Shown here in pieces: positions 29,571 through 42,857 of a stretch of 43,214 bases of DNA. The number at the start of each line of letters is the position of its first letter. Position 1 is the stretch's first letter. Where the stretch lies: the NCBI GenBank assembly GCA_011525945.1, contig WYBJ01000044.1, positions 1-43,214 on the forward strand, in the 5' to 3' direction. Source of the stretch: Burkholderiaceae bacterium. GTDB lineage: Bacteria > Pseudomonadota > Gammaproteobacteria > Burkholderiales > WYBJ01. A program made the position numbers and the translations under genes. The notes under the pieces are model-generated. The model was not told the origin of the DNA, ran no database searches, and saw nothing but the letters and a program-made list of their open reading frames with translations.

Positions 29571-29782
29571 AATCGGGCTGACGCGAACCCCAGCGCTACG
29601 GGCGTCGGGCCAAGACGCGCGACCTCACCCTCGCATTGTCCGATCGCCCGCGGAGGGCTTCTATCGCGATGAATGGCGGACGCGCCAACAAACCGCCACT
29701 TTCGTGTCGGAGGGTTTTACACAATTCGTTGACTTCTTCACGACTCGACTCCAAGCTATTGTTATAGCGGGCGATAAAAGGC
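29571..29782. other. Intergenic region after livF, no gene seen
   Basis: Short frames here have no recognisable protein features. The DNA is less GC-rich toward the right (29690-29780), as expected for an upstream regulatory region of the PEP-CTERM gene. No convincing rho-independent terminator for the liv operon was found. Confidence 0.5.
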
Positions 29783-29798
29783 TGGCATGGCAAGTGCT
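29783..29798 (+). promoter_or_regulatory. Probable sigma-54 (RpoN) -24/-12 promoter
   Basis: The sequence TGGCATGGCAAGTGCT fits the consensus TGGCACG-N4-TTGCA. GG lies at 29784-29785 and GC at 29796-29797, with the required 10 nt between them. It lies 93 bp before the PEP-CTERM gene start chosen at 29891. PEP-CTERM genes in floc-forming betaproteobacteria are known to depend on RpoN with the PrsK/PrsR two-component system, so the match is meaningful. Neither regulator is in this window. Confidence 0.65.
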
Positions 29799-29890: not shown

Positions 29891-32515
29891 ATGCACCGCA
29901 TGCTAGCGACTAGTAGGTCTTGGTTCGTCATCCGTTCTGCGCGTCAAGCGCGCGCTCTGGCGTTGGCTGCGCTTGCTGGCGCCCTGCCTGCGGCCGGGTT
30001 CGCCGCCAACTCCAAGAGCTACGTGTGGACGGGAGGCGACTTTCCCGGCCTGGTGGTTCCCAATCCGCTCCCCGAGGGCGATACGCTGTTCATCGTCGGG
30101 ACCGATACCAACCGTTTTCTGGGCGACTCGTTCACCAACCTGGGCAGCGTTCGATGGCGCTCGGGCAGTGTGCAGGGCGCCAACGGGGCGACGGTTTTCA
30201 ATTCAGGACTTTGGGATTCGTCAGCCGACACCGCTCTCACCGTCGCGGGCAGCCCGCCCACCTTCACCAATAGCGGTACCCTGCGCAAGAGCGGCGGAAG
30301 CGCCGCCACGACGATCAGTTGGGTATTCGCCAACAATGCCGGGAGCATCGACGCGCAGACCGGCTCGATCGTGTTCAACGGCGCAAAGACCACATTCGAC
30401 GACGGCTCGAGCGTCCAGGGCGCTGGAATCGTGAGCATCACGGCCGATGCCGCGTTCAAGGGCAAGCTCTACGCCGACAACCTGGTCTTGGCCTCGGGCA
30501 TTTTCACCGGCGCCGACGCGCGGCTCGCGGGCGGCGTGGCCACGGCCGCCGGTCGGCTCGCCTGGGAAGGGGGGGATCTCGCCGGCACGTGGGAGATCGG
30601 CGCCGGGAACACCTTGACGGCGAGCGGCAAGGGCGTCAAACGTCAGACGGGCGGGTCGCTCGTCAACCTCGGCACGATCCTCTGGAATGACGCCACGGCC
30701 GGATTCCAGGGCGGCAACGGCGCTGCTTTGGTCAATCGAGGGCGTTACGAGGCACAAGTCGATACGCGCATCGGTACCTTCAGCCCGGTGAGCCGCAATT
30801 CCTTCGTCAACCACGCCTCCGGGCTGCTGCGGGCCGCCGATGGCGTCGCGCTCAGGATCGACGGCGTCTCGCTGGTGAACGAGGGGGGCGAGCTCAACGC
30901 CGGGACTGGCGCGAGCATCGCCTATGCGGGCGGGTTCGCGCGCTTCAACGACGGCACTCGGTTTACCGGGTCGGGATCGCACGTGTTCAGCAGCGACGCG
31001 CGCTTTGTCGGCGCATTCCAGGCCGCAAATGTGGCGTTTTCGGGCGGAACGCAATCGGGCGGCGATGGCGTGAGCGCGGGGTCCAAGGCGATCTTGCAAG
31101 GATCGCTCAGCTGGACGAGCGGTGCGCTCGCCGGCGCCTGGGAGATCGCCCCCGGAAGCGTACTGGATGTCTCGGGTGCGGGGGCAAAGCAGCACGCGGG
31201 CGGATCGATCGTCAACGACGGCAGCGTGTTCTGGGGTTCGGGGGCGGCATTGCAGGGCGGCAACGGCGCCGCGTTCGTCAACAACGGGCTGTTCGAGGTC
31301 GGCACGAGCGCGAGCTTCACGAATCTCGGCGGCGTTACGCGCAACACGTTCACCAACGCCGCGACCGGCATCGTGCGCGCCACCAACGGTGCGACGCTCA
31401 CGATTGATGCCGTCGCGCTCAGCTCGAATGGCGGCGAGTTCGAAGCCGGCGCGGGCAGCGCAATCGTGTATGCGGGCGGCTTTGCACAGTTCAACGACGC
31501 AACGCGTTTCAGCGGCGCGGGCACGCATACCGTCAGCAACGATGCCCGCTTCGTGGGTAGCTTCCGCTCGGCCAACCTGATCTTCGCGCCTGGTGGCGTG
31601 CGCGTTGGCGGTGAGGCGGGCGCGAGCGGATCGAAGGCGATCGCGCAAGGCACGCTCGAATGGCGTGGCGGAGAATTGCAAGGCGATTGGGAAGTGGCCG
31701 CCGGCGGCACGTTGACCGCCGCGGGTAGCGGCGCCAAGACGCAGCGCGGCGGCGCCGTGCTCAACAAGGGCGCGGTGGCGTGGAACGCGGATGCGCCGTT
31801 ACAACTGGCACAGAGCGCGCGCTTCGGCAACGAGGGCGTTTTCGACGTCGCCACCGACGCCGACCTGGTTTCGGCTGGGGCGCCGGGCACGTTCGTCAAC
31901 AGCGGGCGCTTCGTCAAGTCCAGTGGCGACGGCGTCACCTCCCTTGCGGGGGTGGCGTTGACCAGCACGGGCGTGATCGACGTTCGCAGCGGCACGATCG
32001 TGTTGCCGGACAATTTCCAGAACGCGGGCGTGCTGGCCGGTACGGGCACGTTCGCGCTCGCCGGCATGCTCATGAACGACGGTCATGTGGCGCCGGGCGC
32101 GTCTCCTGGCACGCTGACGATCGACGGCGATTTCGTGCAGAACGCCGGCGGTATTCTGGATATCGAGCTGAATTCGGCCACGATATACGACCGCCTGATC
32201 GTGAAGGGCACCGCCGTGTTGGGCGGCACGCTCGCCTTGCATTGCTTCGCCGATTGTCGCATGGCGGTCGGCGAGACCATCAGCGTTCTGGAGGTCCAGG
32301 GCGCCTTGATCGGAGCGTTCGATCCCATCACCATGATCGGGTTCGGCGCCGGCGCCTTCGCGCCGCCGAGCTATGACGGCGGCGTCATGCGACTGAGCGT
32401 CATCGAAGCGCTCGCGCCGGTGCCCGAGCCCGCAACCTATGTCCTGATGCTCGCAGGTATAGGCGTGATCGCCTGCATGGCCAGGCGCGGGCGGCGGGCG
32501 CAGCACGCCAGCTGA
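29891..32515 (+). CDS. PEP-CTERM sorting domain protein with 183-residue internal repeats
   Basis: 874 residues. The N-terminus has a signal peptide: basic residues, then ALALAALAGALPAAGFAA. The C-terminus has the PEP-CTERM signal: VPEPATYVL, a hydrophobic segment, then the basic RRGRR end. Exosortase (not in this window) would cut and process it during export. The body is a beta-rich repeat protein with strands like GGSIVNDGSVFWG and GGFAQFNDATRFSG, ending in an autotransporter-like stretch with VAPGASPGTLTIDGDF. No enzyme motif is seen. A longer frame opens at 29813, but the ATG at 29891 is preferred: it has a purine-rich GGAGAAGAGAG upstream, starts the signal peptide, and leaves room for a sigma-54 promoter at 29783. 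It ends 60 bp from the convergent cobW-like gene. Confidence 0.88.
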   Translation: MHRMLATSRSWFVIRSARQARALALAALAGALPAAGFAANSKSYVWTGGDFPGLVVPNPLPEGDTLFIVGTDTNRFLGDSFTNLGSVRWRSGSVQGANGATVFNSGLWDSSADTALTVAGSPPTFTNSGTLRKSGGSAATTISWVFANNAGSIDAQTGSIVFNGAKTTFDDGSSVQGAGIVSITADAAFKGKLYADNLVLASGIFTGADARLAGGVATAAGRLAWEGGDLAGTWEIGAGNTLTASGKGVKRQTGGSLVNLGTILWNDATAGFQGGNGAALVNRGRYEAQVDTRIGTFSPVSRNSFVNHASGLLRAADGVALRIDGVSLVNEGGELNAGTGASIAYAGGFARFNDGTRFTGSGSHVFSSDARFVGAFQAANVAFSGGTQSGGDGVSAGSKAILQGSLSWTSGALAGAWEIAPGSVLDVSGAGAKQHAGGSIVNDGSVFWGSGAALQGGNGAAFVNNGLFEVGTSASFTNLGGVTRNTFTNAATGIVRATNGATLTIDAVALSSNGGEFEAGAGSAIVYAGGFAQFNDATRFSGAGTHTVSNDARFVGSFRSANLIFAPGGVRVGGEAGASGSKAIAQGTLEWRGGELQGDWEVAAGGTLTAAGSGAKTQRGGAVLNKGAVAWNADAPLQLAQSARFGNEGVFDVATDADLVSAGAPGTFVNSGRFVKSSGDGVTSLAGVALTSTGVIDVRSGTIVLPDNFQNAGVLAGTGTFALAGMLMNDGHVAPGASPGTLTIDGDFVQNAGGILDIELNSATIYDRLIVKGTAVLGGTLALHCFADCRMAVGETISVLEVQGALIGAFDPITMIGFGAGAFAPPSYDGGVMRLSVIEALAPVPEPATYVLMLAGIGVIACMARRGRRAQHAS
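30563..31900 (+). repeat. Tandem 549-bp (183-residue) coding repeats in the PEP-CTERM gene
   Basis: The anchor strands WEGGDLAGTWEIGAG, WTSGALAGAWEIAPG and WRGGELQGDWEVAAG begin at 30563, 31112 and 31661, exactly 549 bp apart both times. The intervening sequence also aligns, for example YAGGFARFNDGTRFTG against YAGGFAQFNDATRFSG. Two full units are present. The third unit fades after about 31900, and a degenerate copy precedes 30563. Confidence 0.9.
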
Positions 32516-41874: not shown

Positions 41875-42179
41875 CGTGACGAGAGAACTGGAAATCGAGC
41901 GCGGGAAGCCATGAGCCGGTCGGCTCGAGCGAATGCGCGCGTTTGTTCGCCGGCAATCTACCGGGAGTTCCGGCTCGTGGCAATCCGAGTTGATCCACGT
42001 TAGGGATTGTGTGCGGTCTGAGATCGGCCGCGAGAGTGTCGAGATTTTTGACAGTGAGATCGCGGGTATGGTCATCCCGGTACTCCGGCTTCGGCGGCAT
42101 CGCCTTGATTTCAAACGTGAGCACACCGTCGGGAATAGTTAGTGCTTTGGCATGGGCGGAATCGAAGGGAGACGCAACG

Positions 42180-42857
42180 ATGCACATGAATGGGGTGAGG
42201 AAGCAACTTGTCGCGCTGGCATTGGGATGCTGTGCGGCGGTTCCGGCGCATGCGCTGGTGCTGAGCGCCACCAACTCGAATGAAGTTGTCGTGGATGCCG
42301 CTTCCGCGACCAGGACGGTGAGTATCGGGGCCGGTATCATTACAGGTGTGACCGTCACGCTCGATTTCATGAAGTGTGACGATCCTCTTACGACGCCGCT
42401 ACCGGCTGCTTGTCCGACGCCGGCCCCGTTTCCCGATGAAGGGGATGCCTACGCAAGAGAGATCATCTTCCGGCTGACGAGCCCCCTTGGCACGGAAATC
42501 GGCCTCGTCGAACCGGACACATACTTCCTGGGCTCGTTCGGCGAGGGGCCAAACCCCGGCGGCCGGATCACCGTCACCTTTGACGATAGCGCTGGCGCGC
42601 TTGTCGGATTCGGCGGATTTGTCACTGAAACGGCGGCGCCGGTCGAACCCCTTACGACTCTGCTTGGGGAACAGGCACTTGGCGTGTGGACCCTATACAT
42701 CGAGGACGACACTGGAGCCGATCCTCTCGGACTTGCGCGTTTCACCCTCGATATCACCGCCGATCCTTCCGTAACCGTTCCCGAACCCGCCACCCTAGGT
42801 CTCCTGGGTCTCGGTCTTGCCGGGCTTGGTGTCATCCGCCGGCGCCGCGCAGCGTAG
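42180..42857 (+). CDS. PEP-CTERM protein with proprotein-convertase P-domain-like fold
   Basis: 225 residues. Signal peptide: KQLVALALGCCAAVPAHA. The middle resembles the P/Homo B domain seen at the end of subtilisin-type proteases: IIFRLTSPLGTEIGLV, a loop with FGEGPNPGGRITVTFDDSA and the final strand GVWTLYIEDDTGADPLG, then FTLDI. The C-terminus is a textbook PEP-CTERM signal: VPEPATLGLLGLGLAGLG then RRRR. Exosortase processing is implied. No protease domain is attached. Ribosome site AAGGGAG precedes the ATG at 42180; the frame upstream to 42009 is not protein-like. A strong terminator follows at 42888. Confidence 0.88.
   Translation: MHMNGVRKQLVALALGCCAAVPAHALVLSATNSNEVVVDAASATRTVSIGAGIITGVTVTLDFMKCDDPLTTPLPAACPTPAPFPDEGDAYAREIIFRLTSPLGTEIGLVEPDTYFLGSFGEGPNPGGRITVTFDDSAGALVGFGGFVTETAAPVEPLTTLLGEQALGVWTLYIEDDTGADPLGLARFTLDITADPSVTVPEPATLGLLGLGLAGLGVIRRRRAA

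What the first reader, a model, noticed from the sequence alone, without database searches (positions are those of the whole stretch)
29891..32515. PEP-CTERM protein built from an exact 183-residue period
Anchor strands repeat at exactly 549 bp twice, and similarity extends through the whole unit. The repeat is far longer than ordinary filament repeats and seems to be a beta-solenoid with 'GxVxNxGxVxW' strands. I do not recognise the unit as a named family.
Basis: seen in the sequence. Interest (0 to 1): 0.5.

Follow-up and report, generated by a model that had tools for sequence, protein, structure and literature searches.

The report
Repeating surface protein with sorting tag
This bacterial gene encodes a probably rod-shaped surface protein built from three copies of an undescribed block of about 180 residues; its end cap is of the kind seen in autotransporters, but where those carry a membrane barrel this one carries an exosortase sorting tag.

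Summary
The repeat is real but not exact. The 874-residue PEP-CTERM protein (29891-32515) holds three units starting at residues 95, 273 and 455, flanked by half-units; one anchor recurs at 549/549 bp, another at 534/546. No Pfam, NCBIfam or PDB sequence model covers the unit. It is a rare family (profile matches in 5 of 399 order genomes), with 3-4 units per protein, re-amplified in several lineages. An AlphaFold2 model with homologues (pLDDT 92) is a beta-solenoid; the top solved matches are autotransporter passengers, though global superposition is poor and other beta-helices score nearly as high. The distinctive part is the C-terminal cap: it matches the IcsA autochaperone in fold and autotransporter segments in sequence (profile-profile E 9e-17). 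So this is a passenger-like rod with a PEP-CTERM/XrtA tag instead of a barrel, behind a PrsR/sigma-54-type promoter. Of 60 cap matches in 200 order genomes, 20 are followed by PEP-CTERM-type tails (16 over Pfam's cut-off) and 12 by barrels. The function, holding exopolysaccharide or sister cells in flocs, is inferred. New variant of a known kind.

The parts
29705..29721 (+). PrsR-type box, 17 nt ending in TTTACA
   Evidence: Sequence fits motif 1 of Haft 2006 (passages). The strict two-part pattern occurs once in the genome, here; reversed control 0. Kept before the G001 orthologue.
29782..29798 (+). sigma-54 type -24/-12 site, 60 nt after the box and 92 nt before the start codon
   Evidence: spacing in the published range (mean 62.8, SD 10.6). 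Same 60-nt spacing in G001.
29891..32515 (+). whole gene, 874 residues
   Evidence: orthologue in G001
29891..30004 (+). probable Sec signal peptide, residues 1-38
   Evidence: Hydropathy and reading by eye only
29996..30163 (+). N-terminal half-unit, residues 36-91
   Evidence: Unit profile match, weak (14 bits) but at the same place in the homologues
30173..30706 (+). unit A, 178 residues
30707..31252 (+). unit B, 182 residues
31253..31798 (+). unit C, 182 residues
31799..32059 (+). C-terminal half-unit, residues 637-723
   Evidence: Unit profile matches residues 640-723
31955..32410 (+). autochaperone-type cap, residues 689-840 by profile; overlaps the half-unit
   Evidence: Profile A9; model residues 434-568 = protein 706-840 match the IcsA autochaperone 3ml3, Z 13.9, rmsd 2.7; hhalign with autotransporter segments
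32243..32257 (+). CxxxC pair in the cap (Cys 785 and 789)
   Evidence: Both Cys invariant in the 6 rows of A9; positions
32417..32497 (+). PEP-CTERM tag: PEP, hydrophobic stretch, Arg-rich end
   Evidence: PF07589; hydropathy

Best explanation
The gene encodes a secreted rod: signal peptide; a beta-solenoid made of half-unit, three units and half-unit; a C-terminal cap of autotransporter-autochaperone type; then a PEP-CTERM tag where an autotransporter has its barrel. Likely working: PrsR with sigma-54 switches the gene on; Sec exports the protein; the tag holds it in the inner membrane; the cap closes the C-terminal end of the solenoid and probably starts its folding; exosortase XrtA processes it at the PEP motif; the mature rod reaches the surface or matrix and there binds exopolysaccharide or sister rods, so that cells hold together in flocs. 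Shown here: repeat anatomy, homologues, promoter-like sites, the XrtA/EPS locus, and homology of the cap to autotransporter segments. Predicted: the fold. Inferred: switching, export, XrtA processing, the way across the outer membrane, the folding role of the cap, and the matrix or aggregation function.
For: Tag. Exosortase A with EpsI, amidotransferase, glycosyltransferase, deacetylase and FemAB of the XrtA system on contig C259. PrsR-type box plus -24/-12 site in the published spacing, unique in the genome and kept before the orthologue. Beta-solenoid model, pLDDT 92.1, pTM 0.85. Top Foldseek hits in the PDB are Ag43, a metagenomic beta-helix and pertactin; cap to IcsA autochaperone Z 13.9, rmsd 2.7, 130 of 156 residues. 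Cap by sequence: 12 of the 14 product names among the 30 listed of 93 plasmid records are autotransporters; hhalign probability 98.8, pairwise E 8.8e-17; best PDB hit of the cap profile is the autotransporter Ssp, E 0.0038; one A9 match, L167, holds Pfam AC_1 (E 3.5e-21) in the matched stretch. Cap followed by a PEP-CTERM-type tail in 20 of 60 matches. Floc role by analogy with Aquincola PepA (passages).
Against: Pfam AC_1 on the window cap is below cut-off (E 0.078) and four homologous caps had no Pfam hit. Foldseek TM-scores are low (query-normalised 0.2-0.35, rmsd about 15 over the whole length), and unrelated beta-helices (tailspike, AlgG, NosD) reach Z 13.9-14, so the solenoid alone says little. 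AF2 is known to favour solenoids for perfect repeats (PMC11795689, abstract). PrsK was not found over cut-off in this 87%-complete genome, nor in G002. No promoter pair was seen before the G174 and Roseateles homologues. The strict promoter pattern occurs before this one gene only, not before the other PEP-CTERM genes. No direct evidence on function; PepA itself was not compared in sequence.
Confidence: 0.5

Rival explanations
1. The cap is only a generic end-piece that many bacterial beta-solenoids share. The protein is an ordinary PEP-CTERM matrix protein, and nothing about autotransporters carries over to how it is made or works.
For: Cap matches also sit in proteins that end without a recognised anchor (6 of 60), with a short tail ending near a Cys (10 of 60) or inside longer frames (12 of 60); one of three autotransporters read has the match in mid-passenger.
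Against: It overlaps Pfam AC_1 in L167 and matches the IcsA autochaperone over 130 of 156 residues; 12 of 60 matches are followed by a PF03797 barrel.
Confidence: 0.3
2. The rod is an enzyme or receptor, for example a polysaccharide lyase or a periplasmic carbohydrate-handling beta-helix, not a glue.
For: Alginate lyases, AlgG, polygalacturonases and tailspikes are among the fold matches at Z 11-14; the gene lies beside transporter and amidohydrolase genes.
Against: The 19 columns invariant in 16 units are mostly Gly, Asn and Phe, with two Trp and one Lys, in every unit rather than at one site; no enzyme family matched.
Confidence: 0.1
3. The solenoid model is an AF2 artefact and the repeat region has another fold or none.
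For: AF2 over-predicts solenoids for perfect repeats (PMC11795689, abstract); the single-sequence run gave pLDDT 31.
Against: The units are 38-50% identical, not perfect; confidence appeared only with homologues; the cap's autotransporter homology rests on sequence as well.
Confidence: 0.07
4. The gene is decaying or its repeats are recent assembly or duplication debris without function.
For: Single copy in its genome and rare in the order.
Against: Open frame; orthologue at about 70% identity with the same units in the same order, same promoter pair and syntenic downstream genes; third positions near saturation.
Confidence: 0.03

Closest known systems
PEP-CTERM/exosortase A proteins (PF07589, TIGR02595; Haft 2006), e.g. 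PepA of Aquincola
   Same: Tag, XrtA/EPS locus, PrsR/sigma-54-type promoter
   Different: Long tandem unit and autochaperone-type cap; PepA's own sequence was not compared
Type Va autotransporters with an autochaperone domain (Ag43, TibA, IcsA, Ssp; Pfam AC_1 PF18883, barrel PF03797)
   Same: Predicted beta-helix with C-terminal cap, by fold and for the cap by sequence
   Different: No barrel: no PF03797 match up to E 10; a PEP-CTERM tag instead; AC_1 itself below cut-off
NCBIfam NF038126 (FxDxF family PEP-CTERM protein)
   Same: Residues 754-866 match its C-terminal part, E 6e-10
   Different: 39.6 bits, below the curated 50; does not cover the repeat unit
Other tandem-unit PEP-CTERM proteins of the genus (G002: four units of 228 residues; three of about 232)
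   Same: Tandem long units, related cap, same tag
   Different: The unit profile finds nothing in G002 at E 1e-6; two of the 228-residue units are 220/228 identical, a recent copy
Passenger-associated repeats (Pfam PATR, PF12951)
   Same: Short beta-strand repeats of passengers with similar look
   Different: No match in the window protein up to E 10, while three autotransporters read here do match

Membership tests
PEP-CTERM/exosortase A substrates | C-terminal PEP motif, hydrophobic stretch, basic end | tested here: met
   PF07589 31.6 bits, cut-off 20.7; hydropathy
PEP-CTERM/exosortase A substrates | Exosortase in the same genome, by EPS genes | tested here: met
   XrtA 350 bits, cut-off 208, with XrtA-system partners on C259
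PEP-CTERM/exosortase A substrates | N-terminal signal peptide | tested here: inconclusive
   Hydropathy and eye only; no signal-peptide predictor at hand
PEP-CTERM/exosortase A substrates | PrsR box and sigma-54 promoter upstream (99 of 167 proteobacterial genes in Haft 2006) | tested here: met
   PrsK not over cut-off in this genome, present in 4 of 5 relatives
PEP-CTERM/exosortase A substrates | Processing by the exosortase | not testable with these tools
   Needs protein chemistry
Type Va autotransporters | C-terminal 12-stranded barrel (PF03797) | tested here: not met
   No PF03797 match up to E 10; the frame ends after the tag
Type Va autotransporters | Beta-helix passenger | tested here: met
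   As a prediction only
Autochaperone domain (AC_1 type) | Fold of three rungs plus hairpin at the passenger end | tested here: met
   IcsA autochaperone 3ml3 Z 13.9, rmsd 2.7, 130 of 156; predicted model
Autochaperone domain (AC_1 type) | Sequence match to the family | tested here: inconclusive
   PF18883 E 0.078 below cut-off, no hit for four homologous caps; but hhalign E 8.8e-17 with autotransporter segments and AC_1 inside one A9 match
Self-associating autotransporters (Ag43 type) | Cell-cell aggregation through the passenger | not testable with these tools
   Needs an aggregation assay
PATR and other named short passenger repeats | Match to the repeat model | tested here: not met
   Only PEP-CTERM matches in Pfam up to E 10
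Two-partner (FHA-type) exoproteins | N-terminal secretion (TPS) domain | tested here: not met
   No such Pfam or NCBIfam match up to E 10

The most novel reading that the evidence does not exclude
Beta-helix passengers with an autochaperone-type cap are a portable module that bacteria place on the surface by more than one route. In Burkholderiales a class of PEP-CTERM proteins are barrel-less passengers, sorted by an exosortase instead of a barrel, with the cap folding the rod without any barrel, and serving as sigma-54-switched counterparts of Ag43 that glue cells and exopolysaccharide into flocs. The unit of about 180 residues is one of several independently amplified rods of this class.
Probability: 0.3. 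Interest if true: 0.7.

Novelty: new variant of a known kind. Interest (0 to 1): 0.5.

Why it matters
What PEP-CTERM proteins look like and do is largely open, although this genome alone has 22 over Pfam's cut-off. An autotransporter-type cap next to the tag would give part of them a fold, a starting point for folding and a testable role. It also makes a question about autotransporters testable: whether the autochaperone domain works without a barrel. If such rods hold exopolysaccharide or cells together, they would be a molecular part of flocs and biofilms, with rod length set by copies of a long unit.

Tried and rejected
Single-sequence AF2 of the full protein failed (pLDDT 31.2), so I used window units with homologues from named contigs. 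A first such alignment was misregistered, because window rows A-B and B-C share unit B, and was not used. The AF2 bias to solenoids for perfect repeats (PMC11795689, outline and abstract only) was weighed: it is less likely here, not excluded.

The first genome-contig scan with the whole protein found no relative. The unit profile against the PDB gave only chance-level hits (inosine monophosphate dehydrogenase, E 0.33), and NCBIfam a chance-level partial hit at 610-650 (E 0.0095). Class-wide search with A3: 3 of 369 genomes, one the window's own, the other two matching only parts (85 and 64-69 of 167 positions). HUN and SHNi-TPR Pfam hits in L087 are taken as noise. A recent-duplication origin of the window's array was rejected: third positions agree at 21/46, 21/50 and 27/59 conserved residues against 37% expected. 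tblastx synteny was too noisy; gene-by-gene blastp replaced it. The promoter look at 22 own-genome PEP-CTERM loci was poor: 12 of 22 gave no ORF, mostly because minus-strand loci were read on the wrong strand; none of the 10 read showed the pair, but one of these was this gene itself, cut before its promoter, so I draw nothing from it. In one search the promoter scan did not cover the likely start of L095, and L098 is cut by its contig end.

Literature: 0 papers with PEP-CTERM + autotransporter + passenger; 7 with PEP-CTERM + autotransporter (listing; passages of one, PMC4960237, which speaks of them as separate groups); other listings. The library is open-access only. Passages only were seen of PMC1569441, PMC9850573, PMC8993888 and PMC9289746. 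Recalled, not tested: autotransporter-type repeat annotations also occur on some PEP-CTERM proteins of Verrucomicrobia.

Full report
OBSERVATION. The ORF at 29891-32515 (+) encodes 874 residues and ends in a PEP-CTERM tag (PF07589, residues 843-869, E 1.5e-7). The repeat is real: over residues 41-740 offset 183 scores best of all offsets 20-399 and above all of 200 shuffles, and units A, B and C align 24-46 SD above shuffles. It is not exact: one anchor recurs at 549/549 bp, another at 534/546; units start at residues 95, 273 and 455 and a trailing half-unit at 637. Profile search shows half-unit, A, B, C, half-unit. The units' DNA is 51-59% identical, with third positions near saturation: an old array.

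THE UNIT. No Pfam or NCBIfam model covers it up to E 10, apart from a chance-level partial hit at 610-650, and no PDB sequence does. The window's genome holds the array once. Of 60 relatives only G001, same genus, has a near-full homologue, 72% identical. A profile of six units matches 5 of 399 order genomes at E 1e-6, the window's genome and G001 included; one of the five, G253, matches by 65 of 182 positions only. In genome contigs five loci came up: a Burkholderiales MAG (JAEUOR010000066, a contig of the same length as G174's), a Rubrivivax MAG, a Betaproteobacteria MAG (same length as a G223 contig), Roseateles toxinivorans DSM 16998 and a further Burkholderiales MAG. Arrays hold three units (window, G001) or four (L094, L095, L097, L098), with the half-units on both sides in these six; G223 has four in one frame and one in an overlapping frame, not joined. 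In a tree of 28 units, window and G001 units pair by position, the four units of L094, of L097 and of L087 each form one group, and those of L095 and L098 do not. So in at least three lineages the unit was copied anew to a similar array size.

FOLD. AF2 on window residues 273-842 with 12 further rows gives pLDDT 92.1, pTM 0.85, all beta, 23 strands of three or more residues per unit, recurring at a shift of 182-183. Without homologues it gave pLDDT 31. Foldseek's best solved structures are Ag43 (E 9.7e-6), a metagenomic beta-helix (7jvi) and pertactin, but with TM-scores of 0.2-0.35 and rmsd about 15 over the whole length. VIA-align, a second look at those hits, puts 7jvi (Z 16.3) and TibA (Z 16.1) first; a tailspike, NosD and AlgG come at Z 13.9-14.0, so the solenoid by itself is a common fold. 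The distinctive part is the C-terminal 135 residues of the model, which match the IcsA autochaperone: Z 13.9, rmsd 2.7, 130 of 156 residues.

THE CAP. tblastn of the cap against plasmids matches 93 records at E 0.01; 30 were listed, 14 of these carry a product name, and 12 of the 14 are autotransporters. I read three, from Dyella, Bosea and Nitratireductor: each has a PF03797 barrel; in the first two the matching segment is in the last part before the barrel, in the third it lies in mid-passenger. Profile-profile comparison of six caps with these three segments gives probability 98.8, pairwise E 8.8e-17. The best PDB sequence hit of the cap profile is the autotransporter Ssp, E 0.0038, the next ones being chance; Ssp is also a fold match. 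Against: Pfam's AC_1 matches the window cap only at E 0.078, below cut-off, and four homologous caps not at all. But one match of the cap profile, L167, holds AC_1 at E 3.5e-21 in the matched stretch and a barrel after it.

WHAT FOLLOWS THE CAP. In 200 order genomes the cap profile has 60 matches in 35 genomes at E 1e-7 (at most 19 candidates per genome were scored, so a lower bound). I read the frame after all 60 (30, 30). PEP-CTERM: 16 over Pfam's cut-off and 4 by eye only (L145 and L149 without a Pfam match, L162 below cut-off; L150, whose contig is not in the list). Barrel: 12, all PF03797-positive (in L170 the barrel is cut short). Short tail with a Cys in the last three residues or so: 10. 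No recognisable anchor: 6. Open to the end of the stretch held, so inside a longer frame: 12. Three of the 20 tagged cases are members of the profile itself, and five of the profile's six rows carry the tag, so the share is biased upward. The 20 come from 11 genomes of 5 families. The window's genome has a second such protein on C262, by eye, and one true autotransporter barrel on C149.

THE SORTING SYSTEM. The genome encodes exosortase A with its usual EPS partners and 22 PEP-CTERM matches over cut-off. Upstream of the gene lie a PrsR-type box and a -24/-12 site 60 nt apart, as described by Haft 2006 (passages). As a strict pattern the pair occurs once in the genome, here, which means that the other PEP-CTERM genes lack it in this strict form. 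It is kept before the G001 orthologue, and a similar pair precedes a G223 gene; none was seen before the G174 and Roseateles homologues. PrsK was not found over cut-off in this 87%-complete genome but is in 4 of 5 relatives, not in G002. Downstream genes (CobW-like GTPase, amidohydrolase, ABC transporter) are syntenic in G001; the upstream branched-chain transporter genes are not in the 7 kb that I held.

MECHANISM. Shown: the parts and their homology. Inferred: switching by PrsR and sigma-54, Sec export, tethering by the tag, capping and folding by the cap, XrtA processing, delivery to the surface, and binding of exopolysaccharide or sister rods. The analogy for function is Aquincola PepA, which turns released into bound exopolysaccharide and restores flocs (PMC9850573, abstract and passages), and Ag43, whose beta-helix self-associates through Asn, Thr, Asp and Ser contacts (PMC8993888, passages). 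The region between signal and tag is rich in Gly, Ala, Ser, Thr and Asn. My own odds: anatomy and cap homology 0.85, fold 0.85, floc or exopolysaccharide function 0.4.

NOVELTY. A new repeat unit and a little-noted combination, both made of known kinds of parts. In an open-access library I found no paper that joins PEP-CTERM proteins with autotransporter passengers.

Noticed in passing
window 330-24026 (+): One open frame of 7898 residues with RTX, Laminin_G_3, PA14, FG-GAP, LRR, PKD, Ig/cadherin and cohesin matches; it begins inside RTX repeats at the contig end, so its 5' part is probably missing.
   Followed up: partly
window 42009-42857 (+): A second PEP-CTERM gene in the window (PF07589 at 42774-42845).
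   Followed up: no
L034 1411-4749 (G002:C1): PEP-CTERM protein of the same genus with four units of 228 residues, the second and third 220/228 identical: a recent internal copy.
   Followed up: partly
L150 (G000:C262): An 833-residue protein of the window's genome with the same cap, a PEP-type tail below Pfam's cut-off and a different short repeat.
   Followed up: partly
L114, L115, L118, L119, L121, L126, L132, L153, L161, L163: Ten cap proteins end shortly after the cap with a Cys very near the C-terminus; possibly another kind of anchor.
   Followed up: no
L097 4659-7760 (Roseateles toxinivorans): The homologue ends in VPEVP + hydrophobic stretch + RRRK instead of a PEP motif.
   Followed up: no
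window 32243-32257; alignment A9: A CxxxC pair is invariant in the six caps of this unit family and absent from the three autotransporter segments aligned.
   Followed up: no
L087 2431-3528 and 3432-6023 (G223): The unit array is split over two overlapping frames, either a frameshift in the assembly or two genes; read as they stand.
   Followed up: no
G003:C17 (L122): An open frame of 10049 residues in a same-genus genome holds a cap match.
   Followed up: no
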